50,694 nt of DNA from a virus: positions 1 through 50,694 of the IMG/VR virus record IMGVR_UViG_3300045136_000360. The stretch is one strand, 5' to 3'. This document shows positions 1 through 17,477 of this stretch, one piece after another (the first letter of the stretch is position 1; each line of letters starts with the position of its first letter). The notes beneath the pieces are model-generated. The model did no database searches and was not told the DNA's origin. It saw only the letters and a program-made list of their open reading frames with translations. The position numbers were made by a program, and so were the translations under genes.

Positions 1-493
1 CGTACTCGCTGACCACGTTTCAATCCTCACCCGACCCCGCGGCCGGGTGCGACCCGCCGCACCGGCTGCTGGTGGCGCTGACGAGCAAGTTTCAATCCTC
101 ACCCGACCCCGCGGCCGGGTGCGACGCGTGAAGGCGGTCTCGGGCGCGACCGCGGCGGAGATGTTTCAATCCTCACCCGACCCCGCGGCCGGGTGCGACC
201 TGGCGGCGCTCGGCTACGGCACCCAGTTCGCCGCCGTTTCAATCCTCACCCGACCCCGCGGCCGGGTGCGACGATGCAGGCGCTAGAGCAGGCAGGGGGG
301 AGTGGGACGCGTTTCAATCCTCACCCGACCCCGCGGCCGGGTGCGACGCGCCCCGTGATGAGCGACCGCGACCCCGGCGACGTTTCAATCCTCACCCGAC
401 CCCGCGGCCGGGTGCGACGTGGGGAGATCGGCGAGTTGGTAGCCGGCGAGGGCCAGGTTTCAATCCTCACCCGACCCCGCGGCCGGGTGCGAC
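1..493 (-). CRISPR. CRISPR array, left piece (7 repeats, 6 full spacers)
   Basis: Seven identical 37-nt repeats begin at 17, 89, 163, 236, 311, 382 and 457. On the + strand each starts GTTTCAATCC and ends GGGTGCGAC. Spacers are 34-38 nt (54-88, 126-162, 200-235, 273-310, 348-381, 419-456), and positions 1-16 are part of another spacer. On the - strand the repeat ends in ATTGAAAC, the usual 5' handle of type I-A/I-B/III-like systems, so transcription is inferred to run leftward from the phage side. The repeat has an inner palindrome around CCGCGG. No AT-rich leader and no cas genes are present; phage-like sequence abuts the last repeat at 494. Spacer 273-310 is identical to 34783-34820 of this window. 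Spacer 200-235 is the exact reverse complement of a spacer in the right array (50596-50631). Confidence 0.98.
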
Positions 494-696
494 GCCGCGG
501 CGCTGCATGGCATCGAAGATCCAGGCGGCGAACCGGGCCAGGATCGCCGGGTCGCGGGCCTCGGGGGGGCGCGGCGCGACCGGGGCGGGATCGTGTGGGC
601 GCGGGCGTGGCGGGGTCGGCCTGGCCGTCGAGGGACCAGTCGTGGTTTCGGTCGGCGGTGGAGTGGGGGCTTGATGATGGGGCTCTCCTTGATGAG
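494..696 (-). pseudogene. Broken minus-strand coding fragment abutting the CRISPR repeat
   Basis: Two minus-strand frames show strong GC-third-position coding signal in succession: about 690-600 (residues like DRNHDWSLDGQADP), then about 600-494 (ILARFAAWIFDAMQRRG). They are joined by an apparent one-base shift near 600. No ATG or GTG opens the first frame, although AAGGAG lies about 10 nt upstream of it. The second frame runs straight into the repeat and stops inside it, so the 3' end of the gene is lost at the junction. The family is not recognised. The last ~35 nt next to the repeat may themselves be a spacer identical to phage sequence, as expected for a crossover at 493/494. Confidence 0.35.
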
Positions 697-760
697 ATGA
701 TGAGGGGTCGCGATACCCGCGCCTGTCATGCTGGCCTCACTGTATCAGTAACCCCGGCGC

Positions 761-801
761 TTGACAAGTAGTCAACCCTAGAGTATCATTGATACCCTAG
801 G
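761..801 (+). promoter_or_regulatory. Sigma70-type promoter overlapped by a palindromic operator
   Basis: A perfect -35 TTGACA (761-766), a 17-nt spacer and -10 TATCAT (784-789) form a good primary-sigma promoter. The -10 lies inside an almost perfect 25-bp palindrome (777-801): CCTAGAGTATC, centre ATT, GATACCCTAGG. A protein bound there would block RNA polymerase, so this is probably a repressed rightward promoter for the replication/early genes. The same half-sites recur at about nine other places in the window. Between 802 and 993 I see no convincing gene. Confidence 0.75.
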
Positions 802-993
802 ACGGTGCCGGGCGTTGGACGCCCGGGGGAGTGCATGGAGGGCAGACCGGGAGATGCCGCGGCATGCACGGGAGAGAGTATGGGGTGGCCGCGCCCCGCA
901 CGATTATTCGTTGGGATGGATTGGCGGCGGAGGCGCAAAGGAGGGCGGGATGCCGCTGCGTGCGTCGATCTTGCGCCGTGAAAGGCGACTGAG

Positions 994-1293
994 ATGCTTT
1001 CCCCCTCCCCGCGGCCGGGTTCCCGCCCGGCCCCACGGCTACCCGCCCCGTTTCGCCACGAGCGCTGGCCTCGTGCGCGCACCCTCACCCACCACAAGGG
1101 CGGCGCCGGGCGTGTCCCGGCCGCCCTGCTCCCGCCGCGCGCGCGGCGGGGTGGTCCGGTGGTCCGGCGGCCGGCCTGGCTGCGCGACGAGCCGCTGGCG
1201 ACGGTGCTGACTGGGATGGCGGTCGTGCTGGACGCCGGGCTGCTGATCCTGGCGGCGGTGCTGCTGGCGGCGGGGCGCTGGCCGTGGGCGTGA
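994..1293 (+). CDS. Small membrane protein, unknown function
   Basis: The frame encodes up to 99 residues: an arginine/proline-rich N-terminal half and a C-terminal hydrophobic segment (about residues 68-95, including LLILAAVLLAAG) that should be one membrane helix. The N-terminal half has poor coding character, so the true product may start at GTG 1159 (about 44 residues). It ends just before the replication-protein gene. No family is recognised. A small inner-membrane phage protein of this kind could act in host takeover or superinfection control, but nothing in the sequence shows that. Confidence 0.4.
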   Translation: MLSPSPRPGSRPAPRLPAPFRHERWPRARTLTHHKGGAGRVPAALLPPRARRGGPVVRRPAWLRDEPLATVLTGMAVVLDAGLLILAAVLLAAGRWPWA

Positions 1294-1315
1294 CGATGTG
1301 GGGGCGGCGGCGCTG

Positions 1316-2200
1316 ATGGCCTGGATCGAGTCACACCAGACGCTGGCCCGCCACCCGAAGGCGATCAAGGCGGCGCACCTGCTGGGCATCGGCCGGGCGC
1401 AGGTGATCGGCCACCTCCACCTGCTCTGGTGGTGGGCGCTCGACTATGCGCAGGACGGCGACGTGAGCGCCTTCGGCGCGGTCGAGCTGGCCGAGGCGGC
1501 GGCCTGGGAGGGCAACGCGGAGGCGTTCGTCACGGCGCTGCTCGACTGCGGGCCGGGCGGCCGGCCGGGCTTCCTGGAGCGGACCGCCGACGGCCGGCTC
1601 GTCATCCACGACTGGTGGGAGTACGCTGGCAAGCTCATCGCCCGGCGCACGCTCGACGCCGCCCGCAAGCGCGCCGACCGCGCCCGTACGTCCGACGGAC
1701 GTCCCGCCGCCGCCCCGCCGGACGGGCAGGGGACGTCCCCTGCCCGTCCAGCGGACGCGGCCACGGACGTCCAGCGGACGTCCAGCGGACGTCCAGCGGA
1801 CGTCTCGCGTACCGTACCCAACCCAACCGTACCCAACCAACCCAACCCAACCGACCAACCGCGAGATGCCTCCCGCGCGCCGAACGGCCGGGCGGCGGTC
1901 GCCTCCGGGGGGCGGCCGGCGGGGCGGCGGAAGCCGGAGGAGATCGCGACCTGGGAGCCGCTGGCCTTCGCGCGGTTGTGGAACTTCTTCGGCAAGCTGG
2001 GGGGGTGCGAGGACGCGGCGCGGGAGTGGGACCGGCTGCAGCCGGACCGCGAGCTGATGCGGGCGATGCGGCTGGCGATCGAGCAGCAACGCGAGGCGTT
2101 CGGGTGGGGCCAGCCGGGCGGGCAAGCGCAGCCGTACCTGTCCACCTGGCTGCACCAGCGGCGGTGGACCTGGGAAGCGGTGCCGAACAAGGTCGAGTAA
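1316..2200 (+). CDS. Replication initiator-like protein (winged-helix, DnaD/phage O-like)
   Basis: From ATG 1316 the product begins MAWIESHQTLARHPK, a pattern common at the N terminus of phage replication-initiation (DnaD/replisome-organiser-like) winged-helix proteins, followed by HLHLLWWWALDYA. Residues ~115-190 form a low-complexity linker. The C-terminal ~90 residues (LWNFFGKLGG to TWLHQRRWTWE) form a second conserved-looking domain like those in phage replication proteins. A GTG at 1298 is an alternative start six codons upstream. The linker is encoded by an iteron-like repeat block (1697-1860), as in lambdoid O genes where the origin lies inside the initiator gene. No polymerase or helicase gene was recognised, so host replisome recruitment is inferred. 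The family call rests on pattern, not alignment. Confidence 0.6.
   Translation: MAWIESHQTLARHPKAIKAAHLLGIGRAQVIGHLHLLWWWALDYAQDGDVSAFGAVELAEAAAWEGNAEAFVTALLDCGPGGRPGFLERTADGRLVIHDWWEYAGKLIARRTLDAARKRADRARTSDGRPAAAPPDGQGTSPARPADAATDVQRTSSGRPADVSRTVPNPTVPNQPNPTDQPRDASRAPNGRAAVASGGRPAGRRKPEEIATWEPLAFARLWNFFGKLGGCEDAAREWDRLQPDRELMRAMRLAIEQQREAFGWGQPGGQAQPYLSTWLHQRRWTWEAVPNKVE
1697..1860 (+). repeat. Iteron-like GGACGTCC repeats plus AC-rich tract: candidate replication origin
   Basis: The palindrome GGACGTCC occurs at 1697, 1731, 1765, 1776 and 1787, with an imperfect copy at 1798. The last four are spaced exactly 11 bp apart, about one helical turn. From about 1813 to 1860 the + strand is almost free of G and is a run of CCCAACC/ACCCAACC units, strongly strand-asymmetric. 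Iterons beside a compositionally odd tract inside an initiator gene is the layout of lambda ori. The alternative is that this is merely DNA encoding a repetitive protein linker. Confidence 0.5.
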
Positions 2201-2213
2201 GCGAGGTGAGCGG

Positions 2214-2546
2214 ATGGGCAACGAGGACGTCTTCCCCGACGGGCCGGCGCCAGCGCGGCGGGTGGTCCGACGCGTCCGGCCGGGGCAACCGGCCGGGGAC
2301 GGCCGCGGCGAGGGCGGGCCGGGCTGGGAGCGGGCGCGGGCGCTGCACGCGGCAGCGGTGCGCTGGCTGCGGGCCGAGCCGGACCCGCCGGACCTGGCCG
2401 CGCCGCTGGCCTGCCCGGTCGGGGGCCACGCCCACCGGCTGGCGCTGCCGGGCGCGGGCCTGCCGCGCGACGGCGAGGCGCGGTCGTATCTCGGCCGGGC
2501 CTGGCGCTGGGACGCGGCGGCCAATGCCTGGCGCCGCGTGGGATGA
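2214..2546 (+). CDS. Hypothetical protein, replication region
   Basis: A 110-residue protein starting MGNEDVFPDG, just downstream of the replication-initiator gene and overlapping the next start by 4 nt (ATGA at 2543-2546). The centre is alanine/arginine-rich and the C-terminal part (RSYLGRAWRWDAAANAWRRVG) is tryptophan-rich and may be a small beta domain. No family is recognised. Third-codon GC and tight coupling on both sides support translation. Confidence 0.6.
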   Translation: MGNEDVFPDGPAPARRVVRRVRPGQPAGDGRGEGGPGWERARALHAAAVRWLRAEPDPPDLAAPLACPVGGHAHRLALPGAGLPRDGEARSYLGRAWRWDAAANAWRRVG

Positions 2547-2719
2547 GGACGCTGGAGGAGAACGGCCACCTCTTCACCTGCTGGGGGAGCCGCGAGGCTG
2601 TCCCCTGCACCCACGACGGCTGCCGCGCCGTGCGCGCCGCCGTGGCACTCGCCCGCGAGCGGGGCTATCTCGACCGATCGACCGCCACCCATGGAGGGAC
2701 TGGGCATGAGCGAGCATAG
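2543..2719 (+). CDS. Small cysteine-containing protein
   Basis: A 58-residue product beginning MRTLEENGHLFTCWG, read from the ATG that overlaps the stop of the preceding gene and ending inside the next gene (overlap 2706-2719). Three cysteines plus a histidine (C-x8-CTHDGC) could bind one metal ion. No family is recognised. Coupled starts on both sides are the main evidence that it is expressed. Confidence 0.5.
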   Translation: MRTLEENGHLFTCWGSREAVPCTHDGCRAVRAAVALARERGYLDRSTATHGGTGHERA

Positions 2720-3143
2720 TACGATCGCCTGGACGGACGCCACCTGGCCGGTCGTCGTCGGCTGCGACCGCGTGTCGCCCGGCTGCGCTGCCTGCTATGC
2801 CATCCGCGACGCCTGGCGGATGGCGCACAACCCGAACCCGAAGATCAGCGACGTTTACCGTGGGCTGGTGGAGCCGTGCGGGGCGGGTCATCTGATGGAT
2901 CGCGATCCAGGGTGCGAGCACTGTCGCGGCACCAGGTGGCGGCCCACCGTAGAGGGGTTGGCCTGGGCGCGGTCGCTGCGGGACCAGTGCCAGGCGGCTG
3001 GGGTTGGCTTCTGGTGGAAACAGTGGGGCGGCCCCGGCCCGGAGAGTGGCGGGAGTCTGCTGGACGGACGCCGCTGGGAGCAGATGCCGGACGGGACGGG
3101 CGGGATCGTGGACTTCGGTCTTGACACATCCGCTATCAAGTGA
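2706..3143 (+). CDS. DUF5131 (phage Gp37/Gp68)-like protein with shortened middle
   Basis: The start MSEHSTIAWTDATWPVVVGC and the Cys-rich SPGCAACYA match the opening of the Gp37/Gp68 (DUF5131) family, and the end WARSLRDQCQAAG...WWKQWGG...LLDGRRWEQMP matches its tail. Family members are usually about 230-300 residues; this one is about 145, so the central part seems to have been deleted and replaced by a short Cys/His-rich stretch (about residues 50-78). Function of the family is unsettled. The 3' end overlaps a promoter (TTGACA at 3121). I read it as a decayed or minimised member. Confidence 0.65.
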   Translation: MSEHSTIAWTDATWPVVVGCDRVSPGCAACYAIRDAWRMAHNPNPKISDVYRGLVEPCGAGHLMDRDPGCEHCRGTRWRPTVEGLAWARSLRDQCQAAGVGFWWKQWGGPGPESGGSLLDGRRWEQMPDGTGGIVDFGLDTSAIK

Positions 3144-3182
3144 GACACTGGCATTGACACGTTAGAGCATCGCTGATGCGTT
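3121..3182 (+). promoter_or_regulatory. Promoter with downstream operator
   Basis: TTGACA (3121-3126), 17 nt, then GACACT (3144-3149), aligned exactly with the TTGACA-17-GATACT promoters at 42803, 45763, 46586 and 48803. Seven nt downstream comes the recurrent three-half-site element: GACAC (3156), GCATC (3167), GATGC (3175). It would drive the small gene at 3201 and perhaps the sigma factor. Confidence 0.7.
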
Positions 3183-3200
3183 ACCGGGAGGAGATGCGCG

Positions 3201-3389
3201 ATGGCACTTGGGCACACCGGGGTTCAGCGGGGCAAGCGGGTACTGGTGATCCTCAAATCGGGGGAGCGCCTGATCGACCACTTCAAGTATCGCAACGACC
3301 TGGCGGTGTTCCTGCGGGAGGCGGGGCGGGTGGAGAAGGAGCGGATGCGCTCGCTATCGATCTACAAGGGGCCGGTCGCTGGGGAGTGA
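3201..3389 (+). CDS. Small basic protein, unknown
   Basis: A 62-residue protein, MALGHTGVQRGKRVLVILKS..., preceded by a good ribosome site (GGGAGGAG, ~9 nt upstream). It contains alternating hydrophobic residues (VLVILKSGERLIDHF) suggesting a short beta strand-turn-strand, then a charged helix (REAGRVEKERMRSL). It sits between two operator elements and directly before the sigma-factor gene. It could be a regulator such as an anti-sigma or operator-binding peptide, but that is only position-based inference. Confidence 0.65.
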   Translation: MALGHTGVQRGKRVLVILKSGERLIDHFKYRNDLAVFLREAGRVEKERMRSLSIYKGPVAGE

Positions 3390-3416
3390 CACTCAAGAGT
3401 ATCATTGACACGTTAG
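3388..3416 (+). promoter_or_regulatory. Operator element before the sigma-factor gene
   Basis: Half-sites GACAC (3388), GTATC (3399) and GACAC (3407) are phased as in the other copies and end about 10 nt before the sigma-factor ATG, abutting its ribosome site (AGGAGAG). No clear -35 box lies upstream at the expected distance. The element overlaps the stop of the preceding gene. Confidence 0.6.
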
Positions 3417-3425
3417 GAGAGACGA

Positions 3426-4022
3426 ATGCGGGTGCTGGGAGATCGGGAGGCGGAGATCGTGGCGCGGGCGCGGGCGGGCGACTCCGAGGCGCAGGGGGAG
3501 ATCTACGGGGCGTTCCGGTGGGTGATCTACGCCTTCATCTACCGGATGGTGGGCGACGAGGATGAGGCGGAGAACCTGACTCAGGACACCTTCATGCGGG
3601 CGTTTCGGGGGCTGTCGGCGACCAGGGAGGACACGAACGTGTCGGCCTGGCTGCACCGGATCGCCTCGAACGCCTGCCTGGACGTGCTGCGCCGGCGGCA
3701 GCGGCTGCGCTGGCAGCCGTGGGAGGGAGAGAAGCACGACCACCTGGTCGTCAGCACGGCGCTCGACGACCCGGAGCGCTCGGCCGAGCGGCGGGAGACG
3801 ATCCTGTTCGTCCGGCGGGTAATGGACCAGATGTCGAGCCGCCACCGGCTCGGGCTGATGCTGCGGGAGTACGAGGGCCTGAGTTGCGCGGAGATCGGGG
3901 AGGTGATGGGCCTGAGCCGGACGGCGGTCAAGTCGATGCTCTTCCGGGCGCGGGAGGAGTTCCGGGCGGTGTATGCCCGGCTTGAGCAGGAGGACCGGGA
4001 GTGGGCGGGGGCGGCGGCGTGA
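3426..4022 (+). CDS. RNA polymerase sigma factor, ECF-like sigma70 family
   Basis: A 198-residue protein with the two-domain plan of group 4 sigma factors. Region 2 is about residues 15-85 (EIYGAFRWVIYAFIYRMVGDEDEAENLTQDTF, with the conserved DAED-like/LTQDTF segment and WLHRIASNACLDVLRRR). Region 4 is about residues 125-182 (SSRHRLGLMLREYEGLSCAEIGEVMGLSRTAVKSMLFRAREEF, a clear helix-turn-helix). The length is typical of ECF factors. Phage-encoded sigma factors redirect host RNA polymerase to middle or late promoters. Its gene carries the same operator as other units, so it may be part of the regulon or direct it. Confidence 0.88.
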   Translation: MRVLGDREAEIVARARAGDSEAQGEIYGAFRWVIYAFIYRMVGDEDEAENLTQDTFMRAFRGLSATREDTNVSAWLHRIASNACLDVLRRRQRLRWQPWEGEKHDHLVVSTALDDPERSAERRETILFVRRVMDQMSSRHRLGLMLREYEGLSCAEIGEVMGLSRTAVKSMLFRAREEFRAVYARLEQEDREWAGAAA

Positions 4023-4415
4023 CGGTGGGGACGCGGAGCCTGCTGTTCGGGGTGCACCAGTTCCTTCTTCACCCGGTGATGGTGGCCCTGGGGTGGAGGA
4101 TGCTGTATGGGCGGTTCCCGAGGGACCCGCGAGTGTCGCACCCGGCCGCGGGGTCGGGTGAGGATTGAAACCCGCCACTGCTCACGCGAGATTGGGGTGC
4201 CGCCATCGCCCCTGTGCTGGGCGGACAAGCTGGCGACCGCGCTGTACCCCGCCTGGTTATTCCTGTTCCTGGCCCGGCTGAGTGGGGAGATAGGGGAGTA
4301 TCTGGCGCGGGCGCGGGAGGATGGTTCTATCGGCCCCGAGGCGACAGAGCGGGAGTGTCTGGCGACGTTACAGACCGACTGGCGACGGCAAGCATACGAG
4401 TATGGGGATCGTTGA
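4019..4415 (+). pseudogene. Phage protein (HD-like/LCWADKL family) split by a CRISPR repeat and lacking its middle
   Basis: From GTG 4019 (overlapping the sigma stop) the frame reads VTVGTRSLLFGVHQFLLHPVMVALGWRMLYGRFPRD up to 4134, then the CRISPR repeat begins at 4135 and its sequence brings a stop. After the repeat, 4172-4415 continue as CSREIGVPPSPLCWADKLATALYPAWLF...SGEIGEYL. Both halves match, in order, the two ends of a widespread phage protein I recall as GVHQF-HP...LYGR...HDWGYWG...HSR-YAR...LCWADKL. About 50-60 central residues, including the His/Asp-rich core, are missing. So the repeat sits exactly where a deletion has occurred, which points to a join made through CRISPR spacers rather than simple insertion. 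Confidence 0.7.
4135..4171 (+). CRISPR. Solitary full-length CRISPR repeat inside phage sequence
   Basis: One complete 37-nt repeat, identical to the terminal arrays' repeat and oriented like the right array (ending ATTGAAAC on the + strand). There is no second repeat within hundreds of bases. It interrupts a phage gene. Phage-encoded solitary repeats are known as RNA anti-CRISPRs, but the missing gene centre on either side suggests instead that the ~35-nt flanks (about 4100-4134 and 4172-4206) are adjacent spacers identical to the phage. Confidence 0.97.
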
Positions 4416-4438
4416 GCGACACGGCGGAGGAATGAGCA

Positions 4439-5761
4439 ATGGACCGGACGATCACCGAGCGCGACCCGTTCCTGGCAATGCCGCGCATCACGCCGGAGGG
4501 GTTCGCGGGGGCGATGGACGGCTCGCCAGCGCTGGCCGAGCGGCCGGCGCGCGCCTACTGGGAGGCCATCGCGGCCACGGGGGTGGACCCCCTGGTTGTG
4601 CTGGCCATCTTCCAGCATGAGAGCAGGATGGGCCGGCTGGGCGTGGCGACGGTGACGAAAAGCTGGGGGAACGTGAAGGCGACCAGTCGGCAGTTCGGGC
4701 CGCCGCCCGTGGGGACCTACACGACCGAGGATGGGCGGGCCTTCAGCAAGTACGCGACCTGGCTGGATGGTTGCGTGGCGACGGCGGCGCGGCTGGCAGC
4801 GCCGGAATGGGTCTACCGGGGCCGGGCGGGGATGGGGGAGGTGTTCGATCATCCGAGCGGGATGGTGTGGGCGCCGGCCGGCGACCGCAACGACCCGGCC
4901 GGCTACCTGGCGAGCGTGCTGCGGTTCATGAACGACCACGCCGACGCCCCGCACCTGGTGGAGGGGCGGTGGGCGATGGTCAACTCCGATCCGGAGCGGG
5001 GCGGGGCGGTGGAGGCGATCGTGCTGCACATCGCCGATGGGACCTATGACGGGACGATCAGTTGGTTCCGGAATAGCGGGTCAGGGGTCTCGGCGCACTT
5101 CGTGGTGGCGCTGGACGGGCGGATCGGGCAGTGCGTGCCGCTCGATCGCGTGGCCTGGGCGAACGGTTGGGACTTCCGCAAGGGGCTCGCCCGCTACCGG
5201 CCGAATCTGGCGAACCACCTGATCGCTCGCTGGTGGCGGGAGGGGAAGAACCCGAATGCGGTGACGGTGAGCATCGAGCATGAGGGCGTGTCCGGGCAGG
5301 GGATGCCCGAGGCGCAGTTGCGGGCCTCGGTGGCGCTGACCCGGTGGCTGTGCGACACCCTGGGAGTGCCGCGGGACCGGGATCACATCCTCGGGCACCG
5401 CGATCTCGACTCGGTGGAGCGGTCGAGGTGTCCGGGGCTGAGTGACCAGGAGTGGGGAGTGTACCTGTGGATGGTAGACGATGGGCCGGCTCCGGCCGCC
5501 GGGGGTGGGGATGAGTTCTACGCCCCGGACAACCCGTTCGGGGCGGTGCCGATGCGCCCACCAATCTGGACCAGGTGGAACCTGCTGCACCAGCAGGGGC
5601 TGGCGCTGCCGATGGTGGGCTACCCGATGGCCCCGCCGCAGGATGCCGGTGGGCGGATGATCCAGCGGTTCGAGCGGGGATGGCTGGCGGCCCAGGGAGA
5701 GCCGGAGCCGTGGGACGTGGTGATGCTGATGCCCCATGAGATCGCCAGCGGGCCGTCGTGA
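4439..5761 (+). CDS. Two-domain endolysin: glucosaminidase/lysozyme-like plus amidase_2
   Basis: This 440-residue protein should cut peptidoglycan at the end of infection. Residues ~35-170 look like a muramidase/glucosaminidase fold, with a likely catalytic Glu in IFQHESRMG. Residues ~180-335 are an N-acetylmuramoyl-L-alanine amidase (amidase_2/PGRP): AIVLHIADGTYDGTISWF, SAHFVVALDGRIGQC, then ILGHRDL and RCPG supply the His, His, Cys zinc ligands. After a glycine-rich linker, residues ~360-425 (IWTRWNLLHQQGLALPMVGY) form a further small domain, probably wall-binding. No signal peptide is seen, so export would need a holin. Holin-like genes lie 36 kb away at 41-42 kb. Confidence 0.88.
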   Translation: MDRTITERDPFLAMPRITPEGFAGAMDGSPALAERPARAYWEAIAATGVDPLVVLAIFQHESRMGRLGVATVTKSWGNVKATSRQFGPPPVGTYTTEDGRAFSKYATWLDGCVATAARLAAPEWVYRGRAGMGEVFDHPSGMVWAPAGDRNDPAGYLASVLRFMNDHADAPHLVEGRWAMVNSDPERGGAVEAIVLHIADGTYDGTISWFRNSGSGVSAHFVVALDGRIGQCVPLDRVAWANGWDFRKGLARYRPNLANHLIARWWREGKNPNAVTVSIEHEGVSGQGMPEAQLRASVALTRWLCDTLGVPRDRDHILGHRDLDSVERSRCPGLSDQEWGVYLWMVDDGPAPAAGGGDEFYAPDNPFGAVPMRPPIWTRWNLLHQQGLALPMVGYPMAPPQDAGGRMIQRFERGWLAAQGEPEPWDVVMLMPHEIASGPS

Positions 5762-5802
5762 TGGGGTGGGGACTGGTGGCGCCGGCGCGGCCGGGGAGGC
5801 GA

Positions 5803-5836
5803 GATAATACCCTGAGAGATCGGTGATACGTTATAC
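5803..5836 (+). promoter_or_regulatory. Operator-like element upstream of the 5856 unit
   Basis: The stretch contains GATAAT (5803-5808), AATACCCTGAGAGATC and GATAC (5824-5828), a degenerate copy of the recurrent operator, followed by TTATACT. No convincing TTGACA lies at the proper distance. It precedes the ribosome site GGGAGG of the small gene at 5856. Confidence 0.45.
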
Positions 5837-5855
5837 TGGCGATGGGAGGTGACGC

Positions 5856-5957
5856 GTGGCGAGCGAGGTGATGGCGGCGACGGTGCTGGTGGTGCTGTTC
5901 GGGCTGATGATCTGCCTGGGGGTGATCGTCCTGCAGGCGATGCTGCTGCCGCTGTGA
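5856..5957 (+). CDS. 33-residue membrane peptide
   Basis: Starts at GTG 5856 with GGGAGG 6-10 nt upstream and ends at 5957, overlapping the next start (GTGA). Almost the whole peptide is one hydrophobic helix (MAATVLVVLFGLMICLGVIV). No family is recognised. Its own ribosome site and coupled stop/start support translation. Confidence 0.55.
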   Translation: MASEVMAATVLVVLFGLMICLGVIVLQAMLLPL

Positions 5958-6214
5958 CGGGCGAGACGCTGGCGGCCCCGGACCTGGCGGGGCTGCCGGA
6001 GGATGGCGGGCGGGACCACGTGCGGATGGCCCGGACCGGACCGCTGCGCTCCGCCGAGGGGCAATGCCCGGCCTGCCGGCGGTTCGACACCTGGGCGCGG
6101 TGGCCGAACGGGGGGCAGGTCTGCACGACCTGTCACCCGGTCGGGTTCACGATTGTGGCCGGGGTGATCCAGGTGCCCTGGGTGACGACCACGAGGTTGA
6201 CGGGAGGTGGGTGA
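5954..6214 (+). CDS. Small zinc-ribbon-like protein
   Basis: An 86-residue product from GTG 5954, coupled to the preceding stop. Two Cys pairs, CPAC (about residues 38-41) and CTTC (about 58-61), are spaced as a zinc ribbon with an intervening tryptophan-rich loop. The C-terminal part is a hydrophobic strand-rich tail. Function is unknown. Confidence 0.6.
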   Translation: MTGETLAAPDLAGLPEDGGRDHVRMARTGPLRSAEGQCPACRRFDTWARWPNGGQVCTTCHPVGFTIVAGVIQVPWVTTTRLTGGG

Positions 6215-6463
6215 GTCCGTCTACGAGGCTGACGGCATCACCCTCCACCGGGGGGACGCGGCGGCCGTGCTGCCCGGCCTGGCGGGGCCAGCGTCGACGC
6301 GATCGTGACCGATCCCCCGGCGGGCATCTCCATGATGGGCCACCACTGGGATAGCGACCGGGGCGGGCGGGATGCCTGGGTGGCCTGGCTGGCGGGCCTC
6401 CTGCCCTCCTGGGCGCTGGTGCGGGGCCTGTGGCTGGCCAAGCGGCGGGCGTGGGATGCCTGA
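6207..6463 (+). pseudogene. Decayed DNA methyltransferase (frameshifted and truncated)
   Basis: The first frame reads SVYEADGITLHRGDAAAVLPGLAG. After a one-base shift in a G run near 6288, a second frame continues SVDAIVTDPPAGISMMGHHWDSDRGGRDAWVAWLAGLLPS and stops at 6463. Together they match the start of phage N4/N6-type methyltransferases: the target-gene opening LHRGDA, then the catalytic DPPY-like motif, here DPPA, with the tyrosine missing. The C-terminal two thirds, including the SAM-binding FxGxG region, are absent. The G-run shift could be a sequencing error, but the truncation and motif loss argue for a dead gene. Confidence 0.65.
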
Positions 6464-6872
6464 GGGGGGAGATGCCGTGGCGTGGCGGTTCGCGGGGGCG
6501 GTGGGACAGGCCAGGCGGAAGGCGGCGGCGGCCCCGGCCCTGAAGGAGCGGGAGGCCGGCTTCCAGCGGTACGTGATCGACCTGGCCGAGCGGAACGGCT
6601 GGCTGGTGTATCACATCCGGGACAGTCGGGCGGTGGTCAACAACGCCACGGGGGCGGGCTTCCCGGACCTGGTGATGGCGCACCCGACCCGGACGCTGCT
6701 GGTGATCGCCGAATTGAAGCAGGACCGGCGCTACCCGCGGGCGAATCAGCGGACCTGGCTGGCGGCCCTGGGGGCGGTGGCGGCGCTGGTGCCGGACGGC
6801 CGGGTGCGGGTGGAGGTCTGGCGGCCGAAGGACCGGCCGATGATCGAACGGTTCTTGCGTGGGACCGCCTGA
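6456..6872 (+). CDS. VRR-NUC domain nuclease
   Basis: The core (EREAGFQRYVIDLAERNGW, NATGAGFPDLVMAHP, LLVIAELKQD, NQRTWLAAL) is a VRR-NUC/PD-(D/E)XK nuclease, with catalytic Asp in GFPDLV and E-x-K in AELKQD. These small phage enzymes act as Holliday-junction resolvase-like or structure-specific nucleases in replication and packaging. The start is ATG 6456 (overlapping the methyltransferase remnant) or GTG 6477, which has a better-placed ribosome site (GGGGGGAG). Length (~135 residues) is normal. Confidence 0.82.
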   Translation: MPEGGDAVAWRFAGAVGQARRKAAAAPALKEREAGFQRYVIDLAERNGWLVYHIRDSRAVVNNATGAGFPDLVMAHPTRTLLVIAELKQDRRYPRANQRTWLAALGAVAALVPDGRVRVEVWRPKDRPMIERFLRGTA

Positions 6873-6928
6873 CGTGGCATGATACGGGCTGGAAGCTACT
6901 CGCCTCTGGTCGCCTGCGGGAGGGACTG

Positions 6929-8113
6929 ATGCCGCGGAAGTACGACCCGGAGCGGTTGCGGCCCTACTGGAACGGCACGCACGCGAGTTTCCGGAAGGGG
7001 TGCGCGGCCCTGGGCTGGGACTGGCGAAACGCGGAGCGGGCCTATCTGCGCCTCAAGCAGGAGATGGCGATGGCCGCTGCCCCGGTGGGCGACCAGCAGG
7101 ATGCGCCCGTGACCGGCGGGAAGCCCGAGACGGCGGTCGAGCGGCTGGCGCGGCTGGAGCGGGAGCGGCGGGAGGCGGAGGCGACGGTCATCCGGGAGCA
7201 GGTGCTGACGAATGAGGAAGCGGCGCTGCGGGTGATCCCGGACGCCCCGCGGGCGCGAGGCTACCAGGGGGCCAAGCAGCGGGAGACGGCCGTGCTGGCG
7301 ATGAGCGACCTGCACTGGGGGAAAAAGACCCTGACCTTCGACAACCGCATCCTCCGCGCCCGGCTGGAGGCGTTCGGGGTGAAACTGGCGGCTATCCGGG
7401 ACCTGATGAGCGAGTACGAGTTCGACGAACTGGTGATCCTGCTGCTGGGGGACGTGAACGACGGGACGGAGATCTACCCGAGCCAGGCGCACCATCAGGA
7501 CACCAGCAACGTCGAGGACCAGGCCAGCGACCTGAGCGCCTTCCTGGCCCCCTGGTTGCGGGCGCAGGCCGACGTGTGGGGGCGGGTCCGGGTGGAGGCC
7601 GTGCCCGGCAATCACGGCCGGGCGGGCAAGGGCGCGCACGAGGCCGCCAACTGGGACATCGTGGCCTACAAGTACACCAGTTTCCGGCTGGGGGACAGCA
7701 TCCCCGTGCACCTGAACCGGCAGGGGAGCCCCTTCATCCGCAAAACGCGGGTGTACGAGCACGACCTGCTCCTGCACCACGGCCACGAGATCAAGATGCA
7801 CATGAGTATCCCGTGGTACGGGCTGCAACTGCGGCTCGGGCGCTGGGCCACCAGCAACCTGGCCCCGTTCGATCTGTTCGTCTGCGGGCATTTTCACTCC
7901 GTGGGCTACTGGCAGATCAATCGTATCCCGGTGTTCCTGAACGGGACGGCGGTGACGGACGACAACTGGGCGCTGGAGGGGCTGGGCTACGACTCGGGCA
8001 CGAAGTGGTGGCTGTGGGGGATGAGCCCGAGCCGGCTCGTCACCTGGCAATTCGGCCTCTCGATCGCCGGGGACGGGCCGGCGGCGATACCCAAGGGCAT
8101 AGGAGATGCGTGA
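6929..8113 (+). CDS. Calcineurin-like metallophosphoesterase
   Basis: From ATG 6929 the product is 394 residues. The N-terminal ~100 residues form a basic, HTH-like/coiled region. The phosphoesterase core shows the family's metal motifs in order: MSDLHWG, LLGDVNDGTE, PGNHGR, HHGHE and CGHFH. Such phage proteins resemble SbcD/Mre11-type nucleases, often next to VRR-NUC or ParB-like genes, and may process DNA in replication or recombination. No SbcC-like partner is present. The longer frame upstream of 6929 is a shadow of the nuclease gene. Confidence 0.85.
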   Translation: MPRKYDPERLRPYWNGTHASFRKGCAALGWDWRNAERAYLRLKQEMAMAAAPVGDQQDAPVTGGKPETAVERLARLERERREAEATVIREQVLTNEEAALRVIPDAPRARGYQGAKQRETAVLAMSDLHWGKKTLTFDNRILRARLEAFGVKLAAIRDLMSEYEFDELVILLLGDVNDGTEIYPSQAHHQDTSNVEDQASDLSAFLAPWLRAQADVWGRVRVEAVPGNHGRAGKGAHEAANWDIVAYKYTSFRLGDSIPVHLNRQGSPFIRKTRVYEHDLLLHHGHEIKMHMSIPWYGLQLRLGRWATSNLAPFDLFVCGHFHSVGYWQINRIPVFLNGTAVTDDNWALEGLGYDSGTKWWLWGMSPSRLVTWQFGLSIAGDGPAAIPKGIGDA

Positions 8114-8896
8114 ATGACTGAGGTCGGGCGGGCGATCGACGCGGGGGGCTGGGCGATCCGGGTGGTCGGCCACGATATGGTGGCCCCGGACCAACTCCTG
8201 GCGAACCCGCGCAACTGGCGGCTGCACCCCCGGAGCCAACAGCAGGCGCTCGATGAGGCGGTGGCCGAGGTGGGGTTCATCCGGAGCGTGACGGTCAACC
8301 GCCGGACGGGCTTCATCGTGGACGGGCACCTGCGGGTGGAGCGGGCGCTGGCGGCCGGGGTGACGGCGATCCCGGTGGAGTACGTGGACCTGTCGGAAGA
8401 GGAGGAATGGAAGGCGCTGCTGTTCTTTGACCCGATCGCGGCGCTGGCGACCAAGGACGAGGCGGCGCTGGCGGCGCTGCGGGGCGAGGTGGACCTGAAG
8501 GGCGAGCAACTGCGGAAGCTGGCCGACGACCTGACCGGCGGGGCGAAGGAAACCAGCGACGGCTCGCTGCTGGCGCTGGTGGACGTGACGATCGGGGAGC
8601 CGCGGCATCAGGTGGCCGGGGGCGACGTCTGGCGGGTGGGGCCGCACATCCTGATCTGCGCCGACGTGATGGCCGGCTGGCCCGTTTGGGCGGACTACCT
8701 GCAGGAGGGGACGCTGTTCGTCCCCTACCCCGGCCCGTTCGTGCCCCTCTCGCTCCGGGCCGATGAGACGGCGCTGGTGCTGGTGCAACCGGACCCCTAC
8801 ATCGCCGGGCACCTGCTGGACCGCTACGCCGACGTCCGGGGAGAGGAGGCGGTGGGGCTGGAGCAGCGCACCGCCGAGCCGGGGGGTGCCCGATGA
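8114..8896 (+). CDS. ParB/Srx-like domain protein with vestigial methyltransferase-like tail
   Basis: Residues ~15-110 are a ParB-like domain (LLANPRNWRLHP...SQQQALDEAVAEVGFIRSV, GFIVDGHLRVERALAAG). Many phages fuse this domain to a DNA methyltransferase that begins GDVWxLGxHxLxCGD...DPPY. Here the tail starts the same way (GDVWRVGPHILICADV) but then reads LFVPYPGPF, with no DPPY and no SAM-binding segment, and is only ~100 residues long. I infer a former ParB-methyltransferase that lost its enzyme half. It starts one base after the preceding stop. Confidence 0.75.
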   Translation: MTEVGRAIDAGGWAIRVVGHDMVAPDQLLANPRNWRLHPRSQQQALDEAVAEVGFIRSVTVNRRTGFIVDGHLRVERALAAGVTAIPVEYVDLSEEEEWKALLFFDPIAALATKDEAALAALRGEVDLKGEQLRKLADDLTGGAKETSDGSLLALVDVTIGEPRHQVAGGDVWRVGPHILICADVMAGWPVWADYLQEGTLFVPYPGPFVPLSLRADETALVLVQPDPYIAGHLLDRYADVRGEEAVGLEQRTAEPGGAR

Positions 8897-9093
8897 GCGA
8901 GATCGGGCCGCCCTCCCCGGTGGGCATCGGGCTGGCCTGCCTGGGGGCCGTGATCGCGGGACGGGCGCTGCTGGCGCTGGGCGGCGACCTGCCCCCGTCC
9001 CCGCCCGGCCCCGAACAACTGTTCGCCTGCCTGGCGACCGCGCTGGCCCTGGGGCTGGCGCTGCTGCGGGCGGGCGGGGGGATGCGGCCATGA
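8893..9093 (+). CDS. Small protein with two membrane segments
   Basis: A 66-residue protein starting at ATG 8893 (ATGA overlap) and ending in an ATGA overlap with the DpdA-like gene. Two hydrophobic stretches (about residues 10-30 and 44-60) separated by a proline-rich loop predict a hairpin membrane protein. Its position inside the deazaguanine operon may be incidental. Confidence 0.6.
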   Translation: MSEIGPPSPVGIGLACLGAVIAGRALLALGGDLPPSPPGPEQLFACLATALALGLALLRAGGGMRP

Positions 9094-10004
9094 CCGAGCG
9101 CATCCGGACCGGCGGGACCTGGGACCCGGCGGCGCCCCCGATCTATTTCCTGGCCTCCAACGTGGACCGGATGCAGTGGGGCGTGCCGTGCCATGACCAC
9201 CTGCTGGTGGCGGTGAACGAGCTCCAGACCGAGGGCAATATCGAGAAGGTGGGGGGCTGGATCGCCGCCGGCAAGCAGGTGTTCATCGACAGTGGCATCT
9301 TCTGGCTGACCAACGAGCATGCCCGGCGCAATGGCGTGTCGATGGACGCGGCGCTGGCGCTGGCGCCGGAGGAGATCGACGGCTTCGAGGACCTCTGGAA
9401 GCGCTACCTCTACATCGTGAACCGCTACGGCGACCGGGCCTGGGGCTATATCGAGCTCGACCAGGGAGGGCGGGAGAACAAGCTCCGGACCCGCGCCCGG
9501 CTGGAGGCCGCCGGCCTGCGCCCGATCCCCGTCTATCACCCCCTGAACGATGGCTGGGACTACTTTGACGAGTTGGCAACCCGGTATGACCGCATCTGCT
9601 TCGGCAACATCGTGCAGGCCGACCAGTCGACCCGGCTGCGGCTGCTGGCGACGCTCTGGGAGCGCAAGTGCCGGTACCCCGACCTGTGGGTGCACGTGCT
9701 GGGGATGACCCCCAACGAATGGTTCAACGCCTACCCGCCGTCGAGTTCCGACAGCTCGACCTGGCTCTCCATCGTGCGCTGGGACTGCTACCGGGACGCG
9801 GCGGCGGGCAAGGGGTTCGGGAGGATGCCGAAGAACTTCCAGTACGCGCTGGGGGGCGACCCGGAGGGCGACACCGGCAGCCGGAAGGCGGTCCGGATGG
9901 CGAGCTACGGGAGCAACCTGATCGAGCGCAACCTGCGGAACCACCTGGCGGCCCTGCGGCGGCTGGGCTGCGTCATCCACCCCCCGGAGGACACCCGTGG
10001 CTGA
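9090..10004 (+). CDS. dpdA: DpdA-like deazaguanine DNA transglycosylase (TGT-like fold)
   Basis: A 304-residue protein resembling phage DpdA proteins, which exchange guanine in DNA for a 7-deazaguanine base. Visible features include VFIDSGIFWL (catalytic Asp region of the TGT barrel), YIELDQGG, the ARYDRICFGNIVQ-like strand, and WVHVLGMTPNEWFNAYPPSSSDSSTWLS, which corresponds to the HxxG...SxDSxxWL segment typical of the family. It lies directly upstream of QueD, QueE and FolE genes, so precursor supply and insertion are encoded together. It starts at ATG 9090 with a 4-nt overlap. The alternative, a tRNA-guanine transglycosylase, is less likely in this context and length. Confidence 0.78.
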   Translation: MTERIRTGGTWDPAAPPIYFLASNVDRMQWGVPCHDHLLVAVNELQTEGNIEKVGGWIAAGKQVFIDSGIFWLTNEHARRNGVSMDAALALAPEEIDGFEDLWKRYLYIVNRYGDRAWGYIELDQGGRENKLRTRARLEAAGLRPIPVYHPLNDGWDYFDELATRYDRICFGNIVQADQSTRLRLLATLWERKCRYPDLWVHVLGMTPNEWFNAYPPSSSDSSTWLSIVRWDCYRDAAAGKGFGRMPKNFQYALGGDPEGDTGSRKAVRMASYGSNLIERNLRNHLAALRRLGCVIHPPEDTRG

Positions 10005-10374
10005 GACGATGCTGGCGATCGTGCGGTTCGCGGCCGAGGGCTGGCACCGCTGGCCGGACGCCCCCGACCGGCGCCGCTACCTGCGGGACCCCCACCGCCA
10101 TCTGTTTCACATCGAGGTGGCGATCGAGGTGCGGCACGACGAGCGGGAGATCGAGTACCACGACCTGCTGGACCTGTGCCGGCGCCTGTGGCCCGACCGG
10201 GAGTTGGACGGCCGCGCGCCCGGCGACTGCGCCGCCTGGTCGTGCGAGACGCTGGCCCGCTCCCTGGCCGACCGCCTGGGGGCGATCTACCCCGGCCGGG
10301 CGCTGCAGGTGCGGGTGTTCGAGGATGGGGAGGTGGGCGCGCTGCTGGCCCGCCTCCCCACCAGTCAGGAGTAG
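9997..10374 (+). CDS. Conserved phage protein, possibly T-fold (QueD-like) relative
   Basis: A 125-residue protein from GTG 9997, overlapping the DpdA stop. The sequence FAAEGWHRWPDAPDRRRYLRDPHRHLFHIEVAIEV, with HDEREIEYHDL, is a pattern I have seen in small phage proteins. The clustered histidines and alternating strands recall the tunnel-fold family that includes QueD, but the QueD catalytic cysteine is not evident. It sits between dpdA and queD, so a role in deazaguanine chemistry or substrate delivery is plausible but unproven. Confidence 0.55.
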   Translation: MAETMLAIVRFAAEGWHRWPDAPDRRRYLRDPHRHLFHIEVAIEVRHDEREIEYHDLLDLCRRLWPDRELDGRAPGDCAAWSCETLARSLADRLGAIYPGRALQVRVFEDGEVGALLARLPTSQE

Positions 10375-10379
10375 CACGC

Positions 10380-10772
10380 ATGTTCCGAATCACCAAGGAG
10401 TTCTCGTTCTCGGCCTCGCACGTGCTGGCGGGCTTGCCCGAGGGGCACCCCTGCGGCCGGCTGCACGGGCACAACTACCGGGTGGAGGTGGTCCTGGAGG
10501 GGGAGGTGGACGGGATCGGGTTCGTGCTGGACTACAACGCGCTCGCCCCGCTGGCCGACCACCTGAAGGCGCGGTTCGACCACCGGCATCTGAACGACGT
10601 GCTGGCGCCATTGAACCCCACGGCCGAGCACCTGGCCTACTACCTGTATCACTGGATCGCTGGGGCATTCCCCGACTGGCCGCTGGCGGAGGTGCGGGTG
10701 AGCGAGACGGCCAAGACGTGGGCCAGCTACCGGCCAGATGGTCCGGATGGGATGGAGGTTCCGGGTGACTGA
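10380..10772 (+). CDS. queD: QueD: 6-carboxy-5,6,7,8-tetrahydropterin synthase
   Basis: A 130-residue T-fold enzyme converting 7,8-dihydroneopterin triphosphate to 6-carboxytetrahydropterin, the second step of preQ0 synthesis. It shows FSFSASHVLAG (first zinc His), HPCGRLHGHNY (catalytic Cys and the two further zinc His), VLDYNAL and a FDHRHLND segment, then NPTAEHLAYY with the conserved Glu. Length and motif order are normal, so it should be active. It is followed by QueE in an overlapping frame. Confidence 0.93.
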   Translation: MFRITKEFSFSASHVLAGLPEGHPCGRLHGHNYRVEVVLEGEVDGIGFVLDYNALAPLADHLKARFDHRHLNDVLAPLNPTAEHLAYYLYHWIAGAFPDWPLAEVRVSETAKTWASYRPDGPDGMEVPGD

Positions 10773-11448
10773 TCACACCTACCGGGTGAATGACGTGTAC
10801 GCCTGCATCCAGGGGGAGGGGGCGCTGGCGGGCCTGCCGATGGTGCTGCTGCGCCTGCATGGCTGCGGCGTCGGCTGCCCCTTCTGCGACACGAAGGAGA
10901 CGTGGGAAACCACGGCAGCCAACCGGGTTCCAACCCTCGACGATGCCCTGGGGGCCAACCCCCGCTGGTGCGAGATGACCGCGGACGCGCTGGCCGCCGC
11001 CCTGCGGGAGCGCTTCCCGCGCCTGGGCTGGGTGCTCGTGACCGGGGGCGAGCCCGCCGACCAGCCCCTCGGCCCGCTGGTGGAGGCGCTGCACCGCAAG
11101 CACTTCATCGCCGCCCTGGAAACCAGCGGCACCGCCCTGGGCCACGTGGGGGCGCGCTTCCACTGGGTCTGCGTCAGCCCCAAGATCGGCATGCCCGGCG
11201 GCCGGCCCATCCTGCCGGACGCGCTGGCGAGCGCCAATGAGATCAAGATGGTGATCGGCCGGCAATCCGACCTGGATAAGCTAGACACCCTACTGGCCGA
11301 CCACCGGGGGCATATCCCGGCCAGCGCCATGATCTCGCTCCAGCCCATGAGCGCGAATGCAACCGCCACCCGGCTCTGCTTGGAGACGGCCCTGGCGCGG
11401 GGCTGGCGACTCTCCCTGCAATTGCACAAGTACATCGGCGCGAGGTGA
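10765..11448 (+). CDS. queE: QueE: 7-carboxy-7-deazaguanine synthase (radical SAM)
   Basis: From GTG 10765 (8-nt overlap with queD) the product is 227 residues. VYACIQGEGALAGLPMVLLR and HGCGVGCPFCDTKETW give the radical-SAM cluster motif C-x3-C-x2-C. LVTGGEPADQP is the GGEP motif binding SAM, and ALETSGT, SPKIGMPGG and EIKMVIG match QueE strands. It converts carboxytetrahydropterin to 7-carboxy-7-deazaguanine (CDG). QueC (CDG to preQ0) was not found nearby, so either the host supplies it or CDG or a derivative is the base used. Confidence 0.92.
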   Translation: MTDHTYRVNDVYACIQGEGALAGLPMVLLRLHGCGVGCPFCDTKETWETTAANRVPTLDDALGANPRWCEMTADALAAALRERFPRLGWVLVTGGEPADQPLGPLVEALHRKHFIAALETSGTALGHVGARFHWVCVSPKIGMPGGRPILPDALASANEIKMVIGRQSDLDKLDTLLADHRGHIPASAMISLQPMSANATATRLCLETALARGWRLSLQLHKYIGAR

Positions 11449-11452
11449 CGGC

Positions 11453-12001
11453 ATGAGCGTGGACACGGCCGCGATCGAGAACGCCATCCGGACGATCCTG
11501 GCCGCCATCGGGGAGGACCCCGAGCGGGAGGGGCTGCGGGACACCCCGGCGCGCGTCGCCCGCTTCTGGCGGGAGTTCGTGGACTACGACCCCGGCGAGA
11601 TCGAGCGGGTGTTCACCGCTACCCGGCGGGGCCAGCTCGTGGCCGTGGCCGGGATGCGGGTCTGGAGCCTGTGCGAGCATCACCTGCTGCCCTTCTGGTG
11701 CGACGTGACGATCGGCTACCTGCCCCGCGGGCGGGTGCTGGGCCTGAGCAAGTTCGCTCGGGTCGCCCACCAGCACGCCCACGGGCTGCAAATCCAGGAG
11801 CGGCTGGCCGGGCAGATCGCCCGCTCGATCGAGGAGGCCACCGGCTCGCCCGACGTGGGCGTGATCGTGACCGGCGAGCACCTGTGCATGACGATGCGGG
11901 GCATCCGGACGCCGGGGCGGATGACGACCCTCGACTTCCGAGGGCGGCTGGACGAGGACCCGACCCTCCAGGCGCACTTGCTGCGCCTGGCCGGGGTTTG
12001 A
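11453..12001 (+). CDS. folE: FolE: GTP cyclohydrolase I
   Basis: A 182-residue enzyme (typical for type I) opening GTP to dihydroneopterin triphosphate, the first step toward deazaguanines. It starts ATG 11453, 4 nt after the queE stop. Motifs: GLRDTPARVARFW, WSLCEHHLLPF (zinc Cys and His), GRVLGLSKFARVAHQHAHGL, QERLAGQIARSIEE, and TGEHLCMTMRGIR (second zinc Cys). All catalytic landmarks seem intact. A phage copy ensures precursor supply independent of host folate control. Confidence 0.95.
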   Translation: MSVDTAAIENAIRTILAAIGEDPEREGLRDTPARVARFWREFVDYDPGEIERVFTATRRGQLVAVAGMRVWSLCEHHLLPFWCDVTIGYLPRGRVLGLSKFARVAHQHAHGLQIQERLAGQIARSIEEATGSPDVGVIVTGEHLCMTMRGIRTPGRMTTLDFRGRLDEDPTLQAHLLRLAGV

Positions 12002-12016
12002 GCGTGGGGCTTTGAG

Positions 12017-12577
12017 ATGGCGGCGCCGAAACGGACGCGGCAGCAGCGGGAAATGGACCTGAGCCTGATCGCCGACTGGATGGCGGAGGGCCGGGGGCTG
12101 ATGGAGATCACCAGCTTGCTCAACGGCCGGCGGGGGCCGGACGGCTATACCCTGACCTACCAGCAGATTCATCTCGACATGCGGGAGGTGGAGAAACGCT
12201 GGAAGCTCAACCAGCTTGAGAAGTTCGACGAGCTCAGGGGGAAGCGCCGGGCGGAGTTGGAGCGGCTGAAACGGGTGGCCTGGGATGAATGGTACGCCTC
12301 CAAGCGGGTCAAGGAGATTAGCACCTCCGAGCAGGCCGGGGAGCGGCGGCGGGTGAGCCTGCGGCGGGAGGAGCGGGTGGGGGACCCGCGCTTCCTGGAG
12401 GTGATCCACAAGTGCATCGACCGGCTGATCAAACTGGACGGGGTGGACGTGCAGGAGACGGTGGAACTGGTGATCCGCAAGGAGGCGGAGGAGATCGCGC
12501 GGGAGTTCGGGCTGGACCCGGCGGACGTGCTGCGGGAGGCGCAGGACGTTCTCAGGCGCTCCCGAGGGGAGTCCTGA
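12017..12577 (+). CDS. Terminase small subunit-like DNA-binding protein
   Basis: A 186-residue protein immediately upstream of the large terminase. The N-terminal ~60 residues (DLSLIADWMAEGRGLMEITSLLNGR, YTLTYQQIHLDMREVEKRW) look like a helix-turn-helix as in small terminase/packaging-recognition proteins. The middle is a long charged helix (coiled-coil character, ~65-120), and the C-terminal part has the DPADVLREAQDVL segment. The call rests on position and HTH. It probably binds the pac or cos site. Confidence 0.7.
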   Translation: MAAPKRTRQQREMDLSLIADWMAEGRGLMEITSLLNGRRGPDGYTLTYQQIHLDMREVEKRWKLNQLEKFDELRGKRRAELERLKRVAWDEWYASKRVKEISTSEQAGERRRVSLRREERVGDPRFLEVIHKCIDRLIKLDGVDVQETVELVIRKEAEEIAREFGLDPADVLREAQDVLRRSRGES

Positions 12578-12578
12578 C

Positions 12579-14261: not shown

Positions 14262-14273
14262 GAGGGGTGGGCG

Positions 14274-16742: not shown

Positions 16743-16754
16743 GAGGAGCGCGGG

Positions 16755-16964
16755 GTGGATGACCGGCTGAAGGCGATCATGGACTTCCTGGGAGTGGATG
16801 AGGGGATGGCCCGGCTGGTGATGGCGGTCGAGGACGGGGAGGTGCCCGGGGATGCCTACGCCGTGGATGAGGCCGGCAACCCACTGCCCGATAGCGAGGA
16901 TTTCGACCGCTGGGCGGAGAGCGCGGGGCGCTGGAATGGGGAGGGCAATGAAGGCGGTGATTAG
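16755..16964 (+). CDS. Small acidic protein, unknown
   Basis: A 69-residue product from GTG 16755, preceded by AGGAGGAG, strongly acidic with an N-terminal helix (RLKAIMDFLGVDEGMARLVMAV). It overlaps the start of the next gene by 17 nt. It may be a head accessory factor, but no family is recognised. Confidence 0.55.
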   Translation: MDDRLKAIMDFLGVDEGMARLVMAVEDGEVPGDAYAVDEAGNPLPDSEDFDRWAESAGRWNGEGNEGGD

Positions 16965-17250: not shown

Positions 17251-17477
17251 CGATCTGGCTGGCCCTGTGTCTGGACGATGGCGAGCCGGCCCCGCTGGGA
17301 GCCTACATCGACCTGCCGACCTTGCAGCGGCACGTGGAGTCCTGCCCGGCGGTGCGGGACGCGGCGGCCAGCGGCGAGCCGGTGGCCTGGCGGCGGCTGG
17401 CCCCGGACAAATGGCAACTGGACGTGCTGTGGACGACCTACCAGGCATTCCGGCTGACGGTCGAGGGCGCGGCCTGA
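17247..17477 (+). CDS. Hypothetical small protein upstream of the MuF protein
   Basis: A 76-residue protein, MTIWLALCLDDGEPAPLGAY..., coupled by ATGA to the gene before and by a TGATG overlap to the MuF gene. It looks like a compact alpha/beta domain (DLPTLQRHVESC, WRRLAPDKWQLDVLW). No family is recognised. Confidence 0.6.
   Translation: MTIWLALCLDDGEPAPLGAYIDLPTLQRHVESCPAVRDAAASGEPVAWRRLAPDKWQLDVLWTTYQAFRLTVEGAA

What the first reader, a model, noticed from the sequence alone, without database searches (positions are those of the whole stretch)
273..310. Left-array spacer is an exact copy of this phage's tape measure gene
All 38 nt of spacer 273-310 equal 34783-34820. A CRISPR spacer and its protospacer on one contig means either a self-targeting element or, more likely, host array and phage sequence joined in one molecule or assembly. 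It ties this phage to the host carrying this array.
Basis: seen in the sequence. Interest (0 to 1): 0.8.

Follow-up and report, generated by a model that had tools for sequence, protein, structure and literature searches.

The report
Phage contig stitched to host CRISPR arrays
A bacterial immune-memory array that really does contain pieces of this phage appears on the same assembled sequence as the phage, most likely because assembly software confused the stored pieces with the phage itself, so the link to a host is genuine but the joined molecule probably is not.

Summary
In detail: spacer 273-310 equals 34783-34820 at 38 of 38 bases, inside the tape measure gene. It is one of several signs. 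A right-hand array spacer (50525-50558) is also an exact copy, of the terminase gene (13130-13163); the two arrays point in opposite directions, share one spacer with different neighbours, and show no leader or cas genes; and a lone repeat lies at 4135-4171. That lone repeat sits inside a phage gene: homology to the 'bH1327' protein runs up to both repeat edges, with about 49 or more codons missing between them, while 47 of 50 homologs keep the middle. Two such pieces of one gene flanking one repeat are what two neighbouring host spacers copied from this phage would look like. Best explanation: phage and host array share 34-40 base spacer/protospacer stretches, and an assembly step with short overlaps walked from phage into the host array at both ends, and in and out once at 4135. 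The host-phage immunity link is real, with two spacers shown and about four more inferred. The joined molecule is probably an artefact. Real recombination at spacers is not excluded without reads.

The parts
1..493 (-). left CRISPR array: 7 identical 37-nt repeats, 6 full spacers and one cut by the contig end; crRNA sense on the minus strand
   Evidence: Rfam CRISPR-DR9 on the minus strand
273..310 (-). spacer L4, exact copy of the tape measure gene
34783..34820 (-). protospacer of L4 inside ORF 31760-34852; strand given is the crRNA-sense strand
31760..34852 (+). tape measure protein gene, 1030 aa
   Evidence: PHROGs
50269..50694 (+). right CRISPR array: 6 identical repeats, 5 full spacers and one cut by the contig end; inverted relative to the left array
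50525..50558 (+). spacer R4, exact copy of 13130-13163
13130..13163 (-). protospacer of R4 in the terminase large subunit ORF 12579-14261
200..235 (-). spacer L3, identical to R5; its neighbours on both sides differ between the two arrays
50596..50631 (+). spacer R5, identical to L3
4135..4171 (+). solitary exact repeat copy in place of the middle of a phage gene
4019..4134 (+). first part of the broken gene (residues 11-48 of bH1327 homolog P0001); its last 34-40 nt are an inferred host spacer
   Evidence: tblastn 64%, 3e-16
4172..4415 (+). last part of the broken gene (match to residues 97-141 of P0001); its first 34-40 nt are an inferred host spacer
   Evidence: tblastn 44%, 2e-8
494..533 (-). 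phage sequence at the left junction: inferred spacer (34-40 nt), inside a weakly supported minus-strand ORF
   Evidence: inference; codon score
50229..50268 (+). phage sequence at the right junction: inferred spacer (34-40 nt), between the stop at 50223 and the first repeat
   Evidence: inference
494..50268 (+). phage body (tailed phage with head, tape measure and tail genes), probably incomplete at both ends

Best explanation
The arrays belong to a bacterial host that has stored several pieces of this phage as spacers. Each such spacer (34-40 nt) is identical to a stretch of the phage, so an assembly step using overlaps no longer than a spacer cannot tell phage from array there. At both ends of the contig the assembly followed such a stretch out of the phage into the array (junctions 493/494 and 50268/50269). 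At 4134-4172 it entered the array on one phage-derived spacer, crossed one repeat, entered the next spacer, taken from the same gene further on, and returned to the phage, losing the middle of that gene. Shown: the exact matches of L4 and R4, inverted arrays, one shared spacer with different neighbours, the broken gene with the repeat in its place. Inferred: that the phage bases beside each junction are spacers, and that the event happened in assembly rather than in a cell.
For: Two of 10 distinct full-length spacers are exact phage copies, the other 8 at shuffled level. The lone repeat has phage sequence on both sides that belongs to one gene: tblastn of the bH1327 homolog gives two pieces, residues 11-48 and 97-141, meeting the repeat edges; the first piece alone finds 5 phage records at 68% over 37 of 37 residues. 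In 47 of 50 viral-contig homologs the middle is present, and residues 48 to 112 are 63-114 aa apart in 47 of 47, against 26 aa in the window including the repeat. Junctions fall exactly on repeat borders, and phage-like sequence, not a recognisable leader, precedes both first repeats. The shared spacer L3=R5 has different neighbours on both sides, as expected if array paths were mixed. In a toy graph built from random phages and arrays with 34-38 nt phage-derived spacers, both the in-and-out walk and the run-out walk exist in 50 of 50 trials at each of the five k tested from 21 to 35, and in 0 of 50 at k of 55, 77 and 127. PMC6617893 (passages) states that repetitive regions in CRISPR arrays can give chimeric contigs in short-read assembly.
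Against: No reads, coverage or assembler settings were available. Assemblers whose final k is above about 41 should not make these joins unless a low-k path is carried forward. The bases next to the junctions read sense relative to the genes they cut (4 of 4), whereas 9 of 10 in-array spacers read antisense (2 measured, 7 by codon model); Fisher p = 0.005 if all were independent, though two of the four are in one gene and the assignments at 494 and 50268 are weak. Evidence that genes are cut at 494 and 50268 is much weaker than at 4135: the peptide at 494 had no match in phages. Two neighbouring spacers from one gene in the same order and orientation are unlikely under random uptake; a re-entry this local requires them.
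Confidence: 0.75

Rival explanations
1. Real recombination: the phage recombined with the host array at short spacer/protospacer identities. At 4135 this put a CRISPR repeat directly before a protospacer, which would make that target look like the host's own array and so escape interference.
For: It would leave the same footprint as seen at 4135-4171: repeat edges exact, both flanks from one gene.
Against: It needs independent events at three places, loses the middle of a gene that 47 of 50 homologs keep, and would leave the phage joined to two arrays that still target it.
Confidence: 0.08
2. The phage carries solitary repeat units as RNA anti-CRISPRs, and the assembly joined phage and array through the shared 37-nt repeat.
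For: Exact solitary repeat 4135-4171 matching the array repeat and Rfam CRISPR-DR9.
Against: The repeat lies inside a broken gene, not in a natural intergenic region, and no sigma-70 promoter or terminator match was found in 3900-4300. It does not explain the missing middle of the gene.
Confidence: 0.07
3. Phage-borne arrays used against rival phages with the host's Cas proteins.
For: Arrays are at both phage ends in this record; viruses with mini-arrays exist (PMC6858448 and PMC11656645, passages).
Against: Published virus-borne mini-arrays have 1-2 spacers and the virus's own target loci are mutated or deleted (PMC6858448, passages); here there are at least 6 and 5 full spacers and two exact self-targets. 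No leader recognised.
Confidence: 0.05
4. A prophage integrated in, or lying between, host CRISPR arrays.
For: Phage flanked by arrays on both sides.
Against: Insertion into one array would leave both halves in the same orientation; they are inverted. No host gene or leader between phage and repeats was recognised; no cas or integrase match appeared among the ORFs scanned.
Confidence: 0.03

Closest known systems
Host CRISPR array with spacers matching a co-occurring phage (37-nt repeat, Rfam RF01322 CRISPR-DR9)
   Same: identical repeats, 34-40 nt spacers, exact protospacers in a phage; the nearest repeat found, with 4 mismatches, lies beside type I-C cas genes in an Anaerolineae MAG
   Different: no cas genes or leader seen in the window; the repeat itself was not found elsewhere; neither protospacer is preceded by TTC, the I-C motif recalled from memory
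Solitary repeat units / RNA anti-CRISPRs (Racr), PMC10651486
   Same: a single exact host-type repeat within phage sequence
   Different: sits in place of the middle of a gene; no promoter match; better explained by passage through a host array
Virus-borne mini-CRISPR arrays (SPV1/SPV2), PMC6858448
   Same: arrays next to viral genes, no viral cas genes seen
   Different: long arrays, inverted at the two ends, with exact self-targets
Chimeric contigs at CRISPR arrays in short-read metagenomes, PMC6617893
   Same: array sequence confuses assembly
   Different: here the bridge is the spacer/protospacer identity, so phage and host are joined; the passages read speak of the repeats

Membership tests
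CRISPR array | several identical direct repeats with unique spacers of similar length | tested here: met
   7 and 6 exact 37-nt repeats, full spacers of 34-40 nt
CRISPR array | repeat belongs to a known CRISPR repeat family | tested here: met
   14 of 14 copies reach the gathering score of RF01322
CRISPR array | adjacent cas genes and leader | not testable with these tools
   arrays run off both contig ends; phage-like sequence directly precedes the first repeats; the sample's other contigs are not available
Type I-C CRISPR-Cas | I-C cas genes with this repeat | tested here: inconclusive
   only a repeat with 4 mismatches (L033) has I-C cas genes beside it
Solitary repeat unit / Racr | single repeat in an intergenic region of the virus | tested here: not met
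   4135-4171 splits a gene whose two parts match one homolog up to the repeat edges
Solitary repeat unit / Racr | promoter upstream (often present, per PMC10651486) | tested here: inconclusive
   0 sigma-70 matches in 3900-4300; the phage may use its own sigma factor
Virus-borne mini-CRISPR array | 1-2 spacers per array | tested here: not met
   6 and 5 full spacers before the contig ends
Virus-borne mini-CRISPR array | own genome lacks an exact target | tested here: not met
   two exact self-matches
Prophage integrated into a CRISPR array | same array orientation on both sides | tested here: not met
   left array minus, right array plus
Assembly chimera | junctions not supported by reads | not testable with these tools
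   no reads available

The most novel reading that the evidence does not exclude
The junctions are real: the phage recombines with its host's CRISPR array through the spacers that target it, so that a protospacer becomes preceded by a CRISPR repeat and is then read as the host's own array and spared. This would be escape by acquiring the host's self-mark.
Probability: 0.05. Interest if true: 0.85.

Novelty: already known. Interest (0 to 1): 0.25.

Why it matters
As biology it is an ordinary host-phage CRISPR link: at least two exact spacers, probably about six, from one host against this phage. As a caution it is useful. A virus record can show arrays, self-targeting spacers and a solitary repeat that no molecule carries. 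Because the broken gene leaves the repeat outside any long real ORF, such a repeat could probably pass a search for intergenic solitary repeats of the kind used to find RNA anti-CRISPRs in IMG/VR (PMC10651486, passages; this was not run here). A simple check separates the two: see whether the two flanks are parts of one gene.

Tried and rejected
Exact repeat in viral contigs and genome contigs: 0. Relaxed repeat: 0 in viral contigs, 8 stretches in 5 genomes with 4-8 mismatches in genome contigs. Relatives of the portal protein: 19 viral loci at 46-51% identity, of little use for gene order; the terminase matched 0 of 9 of the records tried. The last full gene before the right array had no relative in phages or viral contigs.

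I first took 4135-4171 for an anti-CRISPR solitary repeat and the joins for repeat-to-repeat joins; the broken gene ended that reading. I considered a type III system because in-array spacers read antisense (9 of 10: 10 distinct full-length spacers; the 16-nt L0 and 26-nt R6 ends and the duplicate R5 were left out). With the four junction stretches added it is 9 of 14, and I do not claim a strand bias. No common motif beside the two protospacers was found; of the three stretches before a junction repeat only the one at 494 shows TTC, at a length of 36. The C-terminal piece of the broken gene alone had no match in phages nor in 400 genomes of the phylum, and no Pfam family; it is recognised through the homolog found with the N-terminal piece. 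A first regular-expression count of the homologs missed most of them (motif found in 7 of 11 ORFs, 50 loci) and was replaced by an alignment-based count.

Recalled, not from a call: the I-C TTC motif, and the reasoning about self-discrimination and about how assemblers carry low-k paths forward.

Full report
What is there. The window is a linear virus record of 50,694 bases. It has a left CRISPR array (1-493, 7 identical 37-nt repeats), a right array (50269-50694, 6 identical repeats) in the opposite orientation, and one solitary exact repeat at 4135-4171. All 14 copies reach the Rfam score for CRISPR-DR9. Between the arrays is phage sequence with terminase, portal, head, capsid, tape measure and tail genes.

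The observation. Spacer 273-310 equals 34783-34820 at 38 of 38 bases, in the tape measure ORF. A second spacer, 50525-50558 in the right array, equals 13130-13163 in the terminase ORF at 34 of 34 bases. Of 10 distinct full-length spacers these two match; the other eight have longest exact matches of 10-12 nt, as 300 shuffled spacers do (mean 11.5, maximum 16). So the arrays hold real memory of this phage, or of one identical at these places.

The arrays. Spacer 200-235 is the same as 50596-50631, but its neighbours on both sides differ. In repeat orientation both arrays start with a repeat directly next to phage-like sequence, without a recognisable leader: on the right, 45 nt after a stop codon. 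An insertion into one array would leave both halves in one orientation; they are inverted.

The lone repeat. It first looked like an anti-CRISPR solitary repeat. But the 37 residues coded before it match the 'bH1327 protein' of five phage records from Manatee Spring at 68%. The full homolog of 212 aa (P0001, from L036) aligns to the window in two pieces: residues 11-48 to 4019-4135 (64%, 3e-16) and residues 97-141 to 4170-4304 (44%, 2e-8), meeting the repeat edges on both sides. Of 50 homologs from viral contigs, 47 carry the middle; the other three alignments end early but continue beyond residue 48. From residue 48 to residue 112 there are 63-114 aa in 47 of 47; in the window 26 aa, 12 of which are the repeat. 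So roughly 49 codons or more of the gene are missing and a repeat stands in their place.

Is the left end the same phage? The segment 494-4134 has the tetranucleotide make-up of the rest, a phage-type sigma factor gene and an 18-bp operator-like palindrome that recurs in the body: 7 sites with up to 2 mismatches, 1 of them left of the lone repeat, against 0 in 30 shuffles. I take it as one phage.

Mechanism. A repeat flanked by two pieces of one phage gene is what an array with two neighbouring spacers from that gene looks like. If the 34-40 nt on either side are spacers, a path through short overlaps leads from phage into array and back. The same step at 494 and 50268 leads into the array without return, which gives two arrays in whatever orientation the spacers have. 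In a toy graph with random phages and 34-38 nt phage-derived spacers, these walks exist in 50 of 50 trials at each k tested from 21 to 35, in part of the trials at k of 37, in 0 and 1 of 50 at k of 41, and in 0 of 50 at k of 55, 77 and 127. The mixed neighbours of the shared spacer fit the same cause. That CRISPR repeats can give chimeric contigs in short-read assembly is stated in PMC6617893 (passages read).

What does not fit well. The four junction stretches read sense to the genes they cut, while 9 of 10 array spacers read antisense (Fisher p = 0.005 if independent). Two of the four come from one gene, and the gene assignments at 494 and 50268 are weak, so I leave this open. Assemblers with a large final k should not make these joins unless they carry a low-k path forward. 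No reads were available.

Known relatives. The nearest repeat found (4 mismatches) sits beside type I-C genes in an Anaerolineae MAG; the exact repeat was not found in the two collections scanned, which may leave out records very near the window. Solitary repeats as RNA anti-CRISPRs (PMC10651486, passages) and virus-borne mini-arrays (PMC6858448, passages; PMC11656645, passages) were considered; the first fails on position, the second on array length and on exact self-targets. Literature searches for such joins did not list, in titles or abstract starts, a paper on spacer-bridged phage-host contigs; I did not read the listed papers in full (PMC8034630 was read in passages only).

Verdict. The match is real and is an ordinary, informative host-phage CRISPR link. 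The single molecule is probably an assembly product. Its value is mostly as a warning for surveys of virus-borne arrays and solitary repeats.

Noticed in passing
window 3387, 20152, 35201, 42839, 45799, 46622, 48839: Operator-like palindrome TGACACNCTAGRGTGTCA, in several cases just upstream of phage genes: 7 sites with up to 2 mismatches against 0 in 30 shuffles; a 114-nt promoter-like block is 99% identical at 46563 and 48780.
   Followed up: partly
window 8763-12001: Genes like queuine tRNA-ribosyltransferase (phrog_887), QueE and GTP cyclohydrolase I in one cluster, suggesting 7-deazaguanine chemistry on phage DNA or tRNA.
   Followed up: no
window 23171-25246: One 691-aa ORF matches both RNA ligase families (about residues 142-315) and head maturation protease families (about 356-685), a possible fusion.
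   Followed up: no
window 1-533, 4095-4211, 50229-50694: In-array spacers read antisense to coding in 9 of 10 cases (2 measured, 7 by codon model), junction stretches sense in 4 of 4; unexplained.
   Followed up: partly
window 29785-30132 and 30151-30495: Two adjacent ORFs about 70% identical in protein, a tandem duplication.
   Followed up: no
window 494-50268: No DNA polymerase, primase or replicative helicase match among the ORFs scanned, so the phage is probably incomplete.
   Followed up: partly
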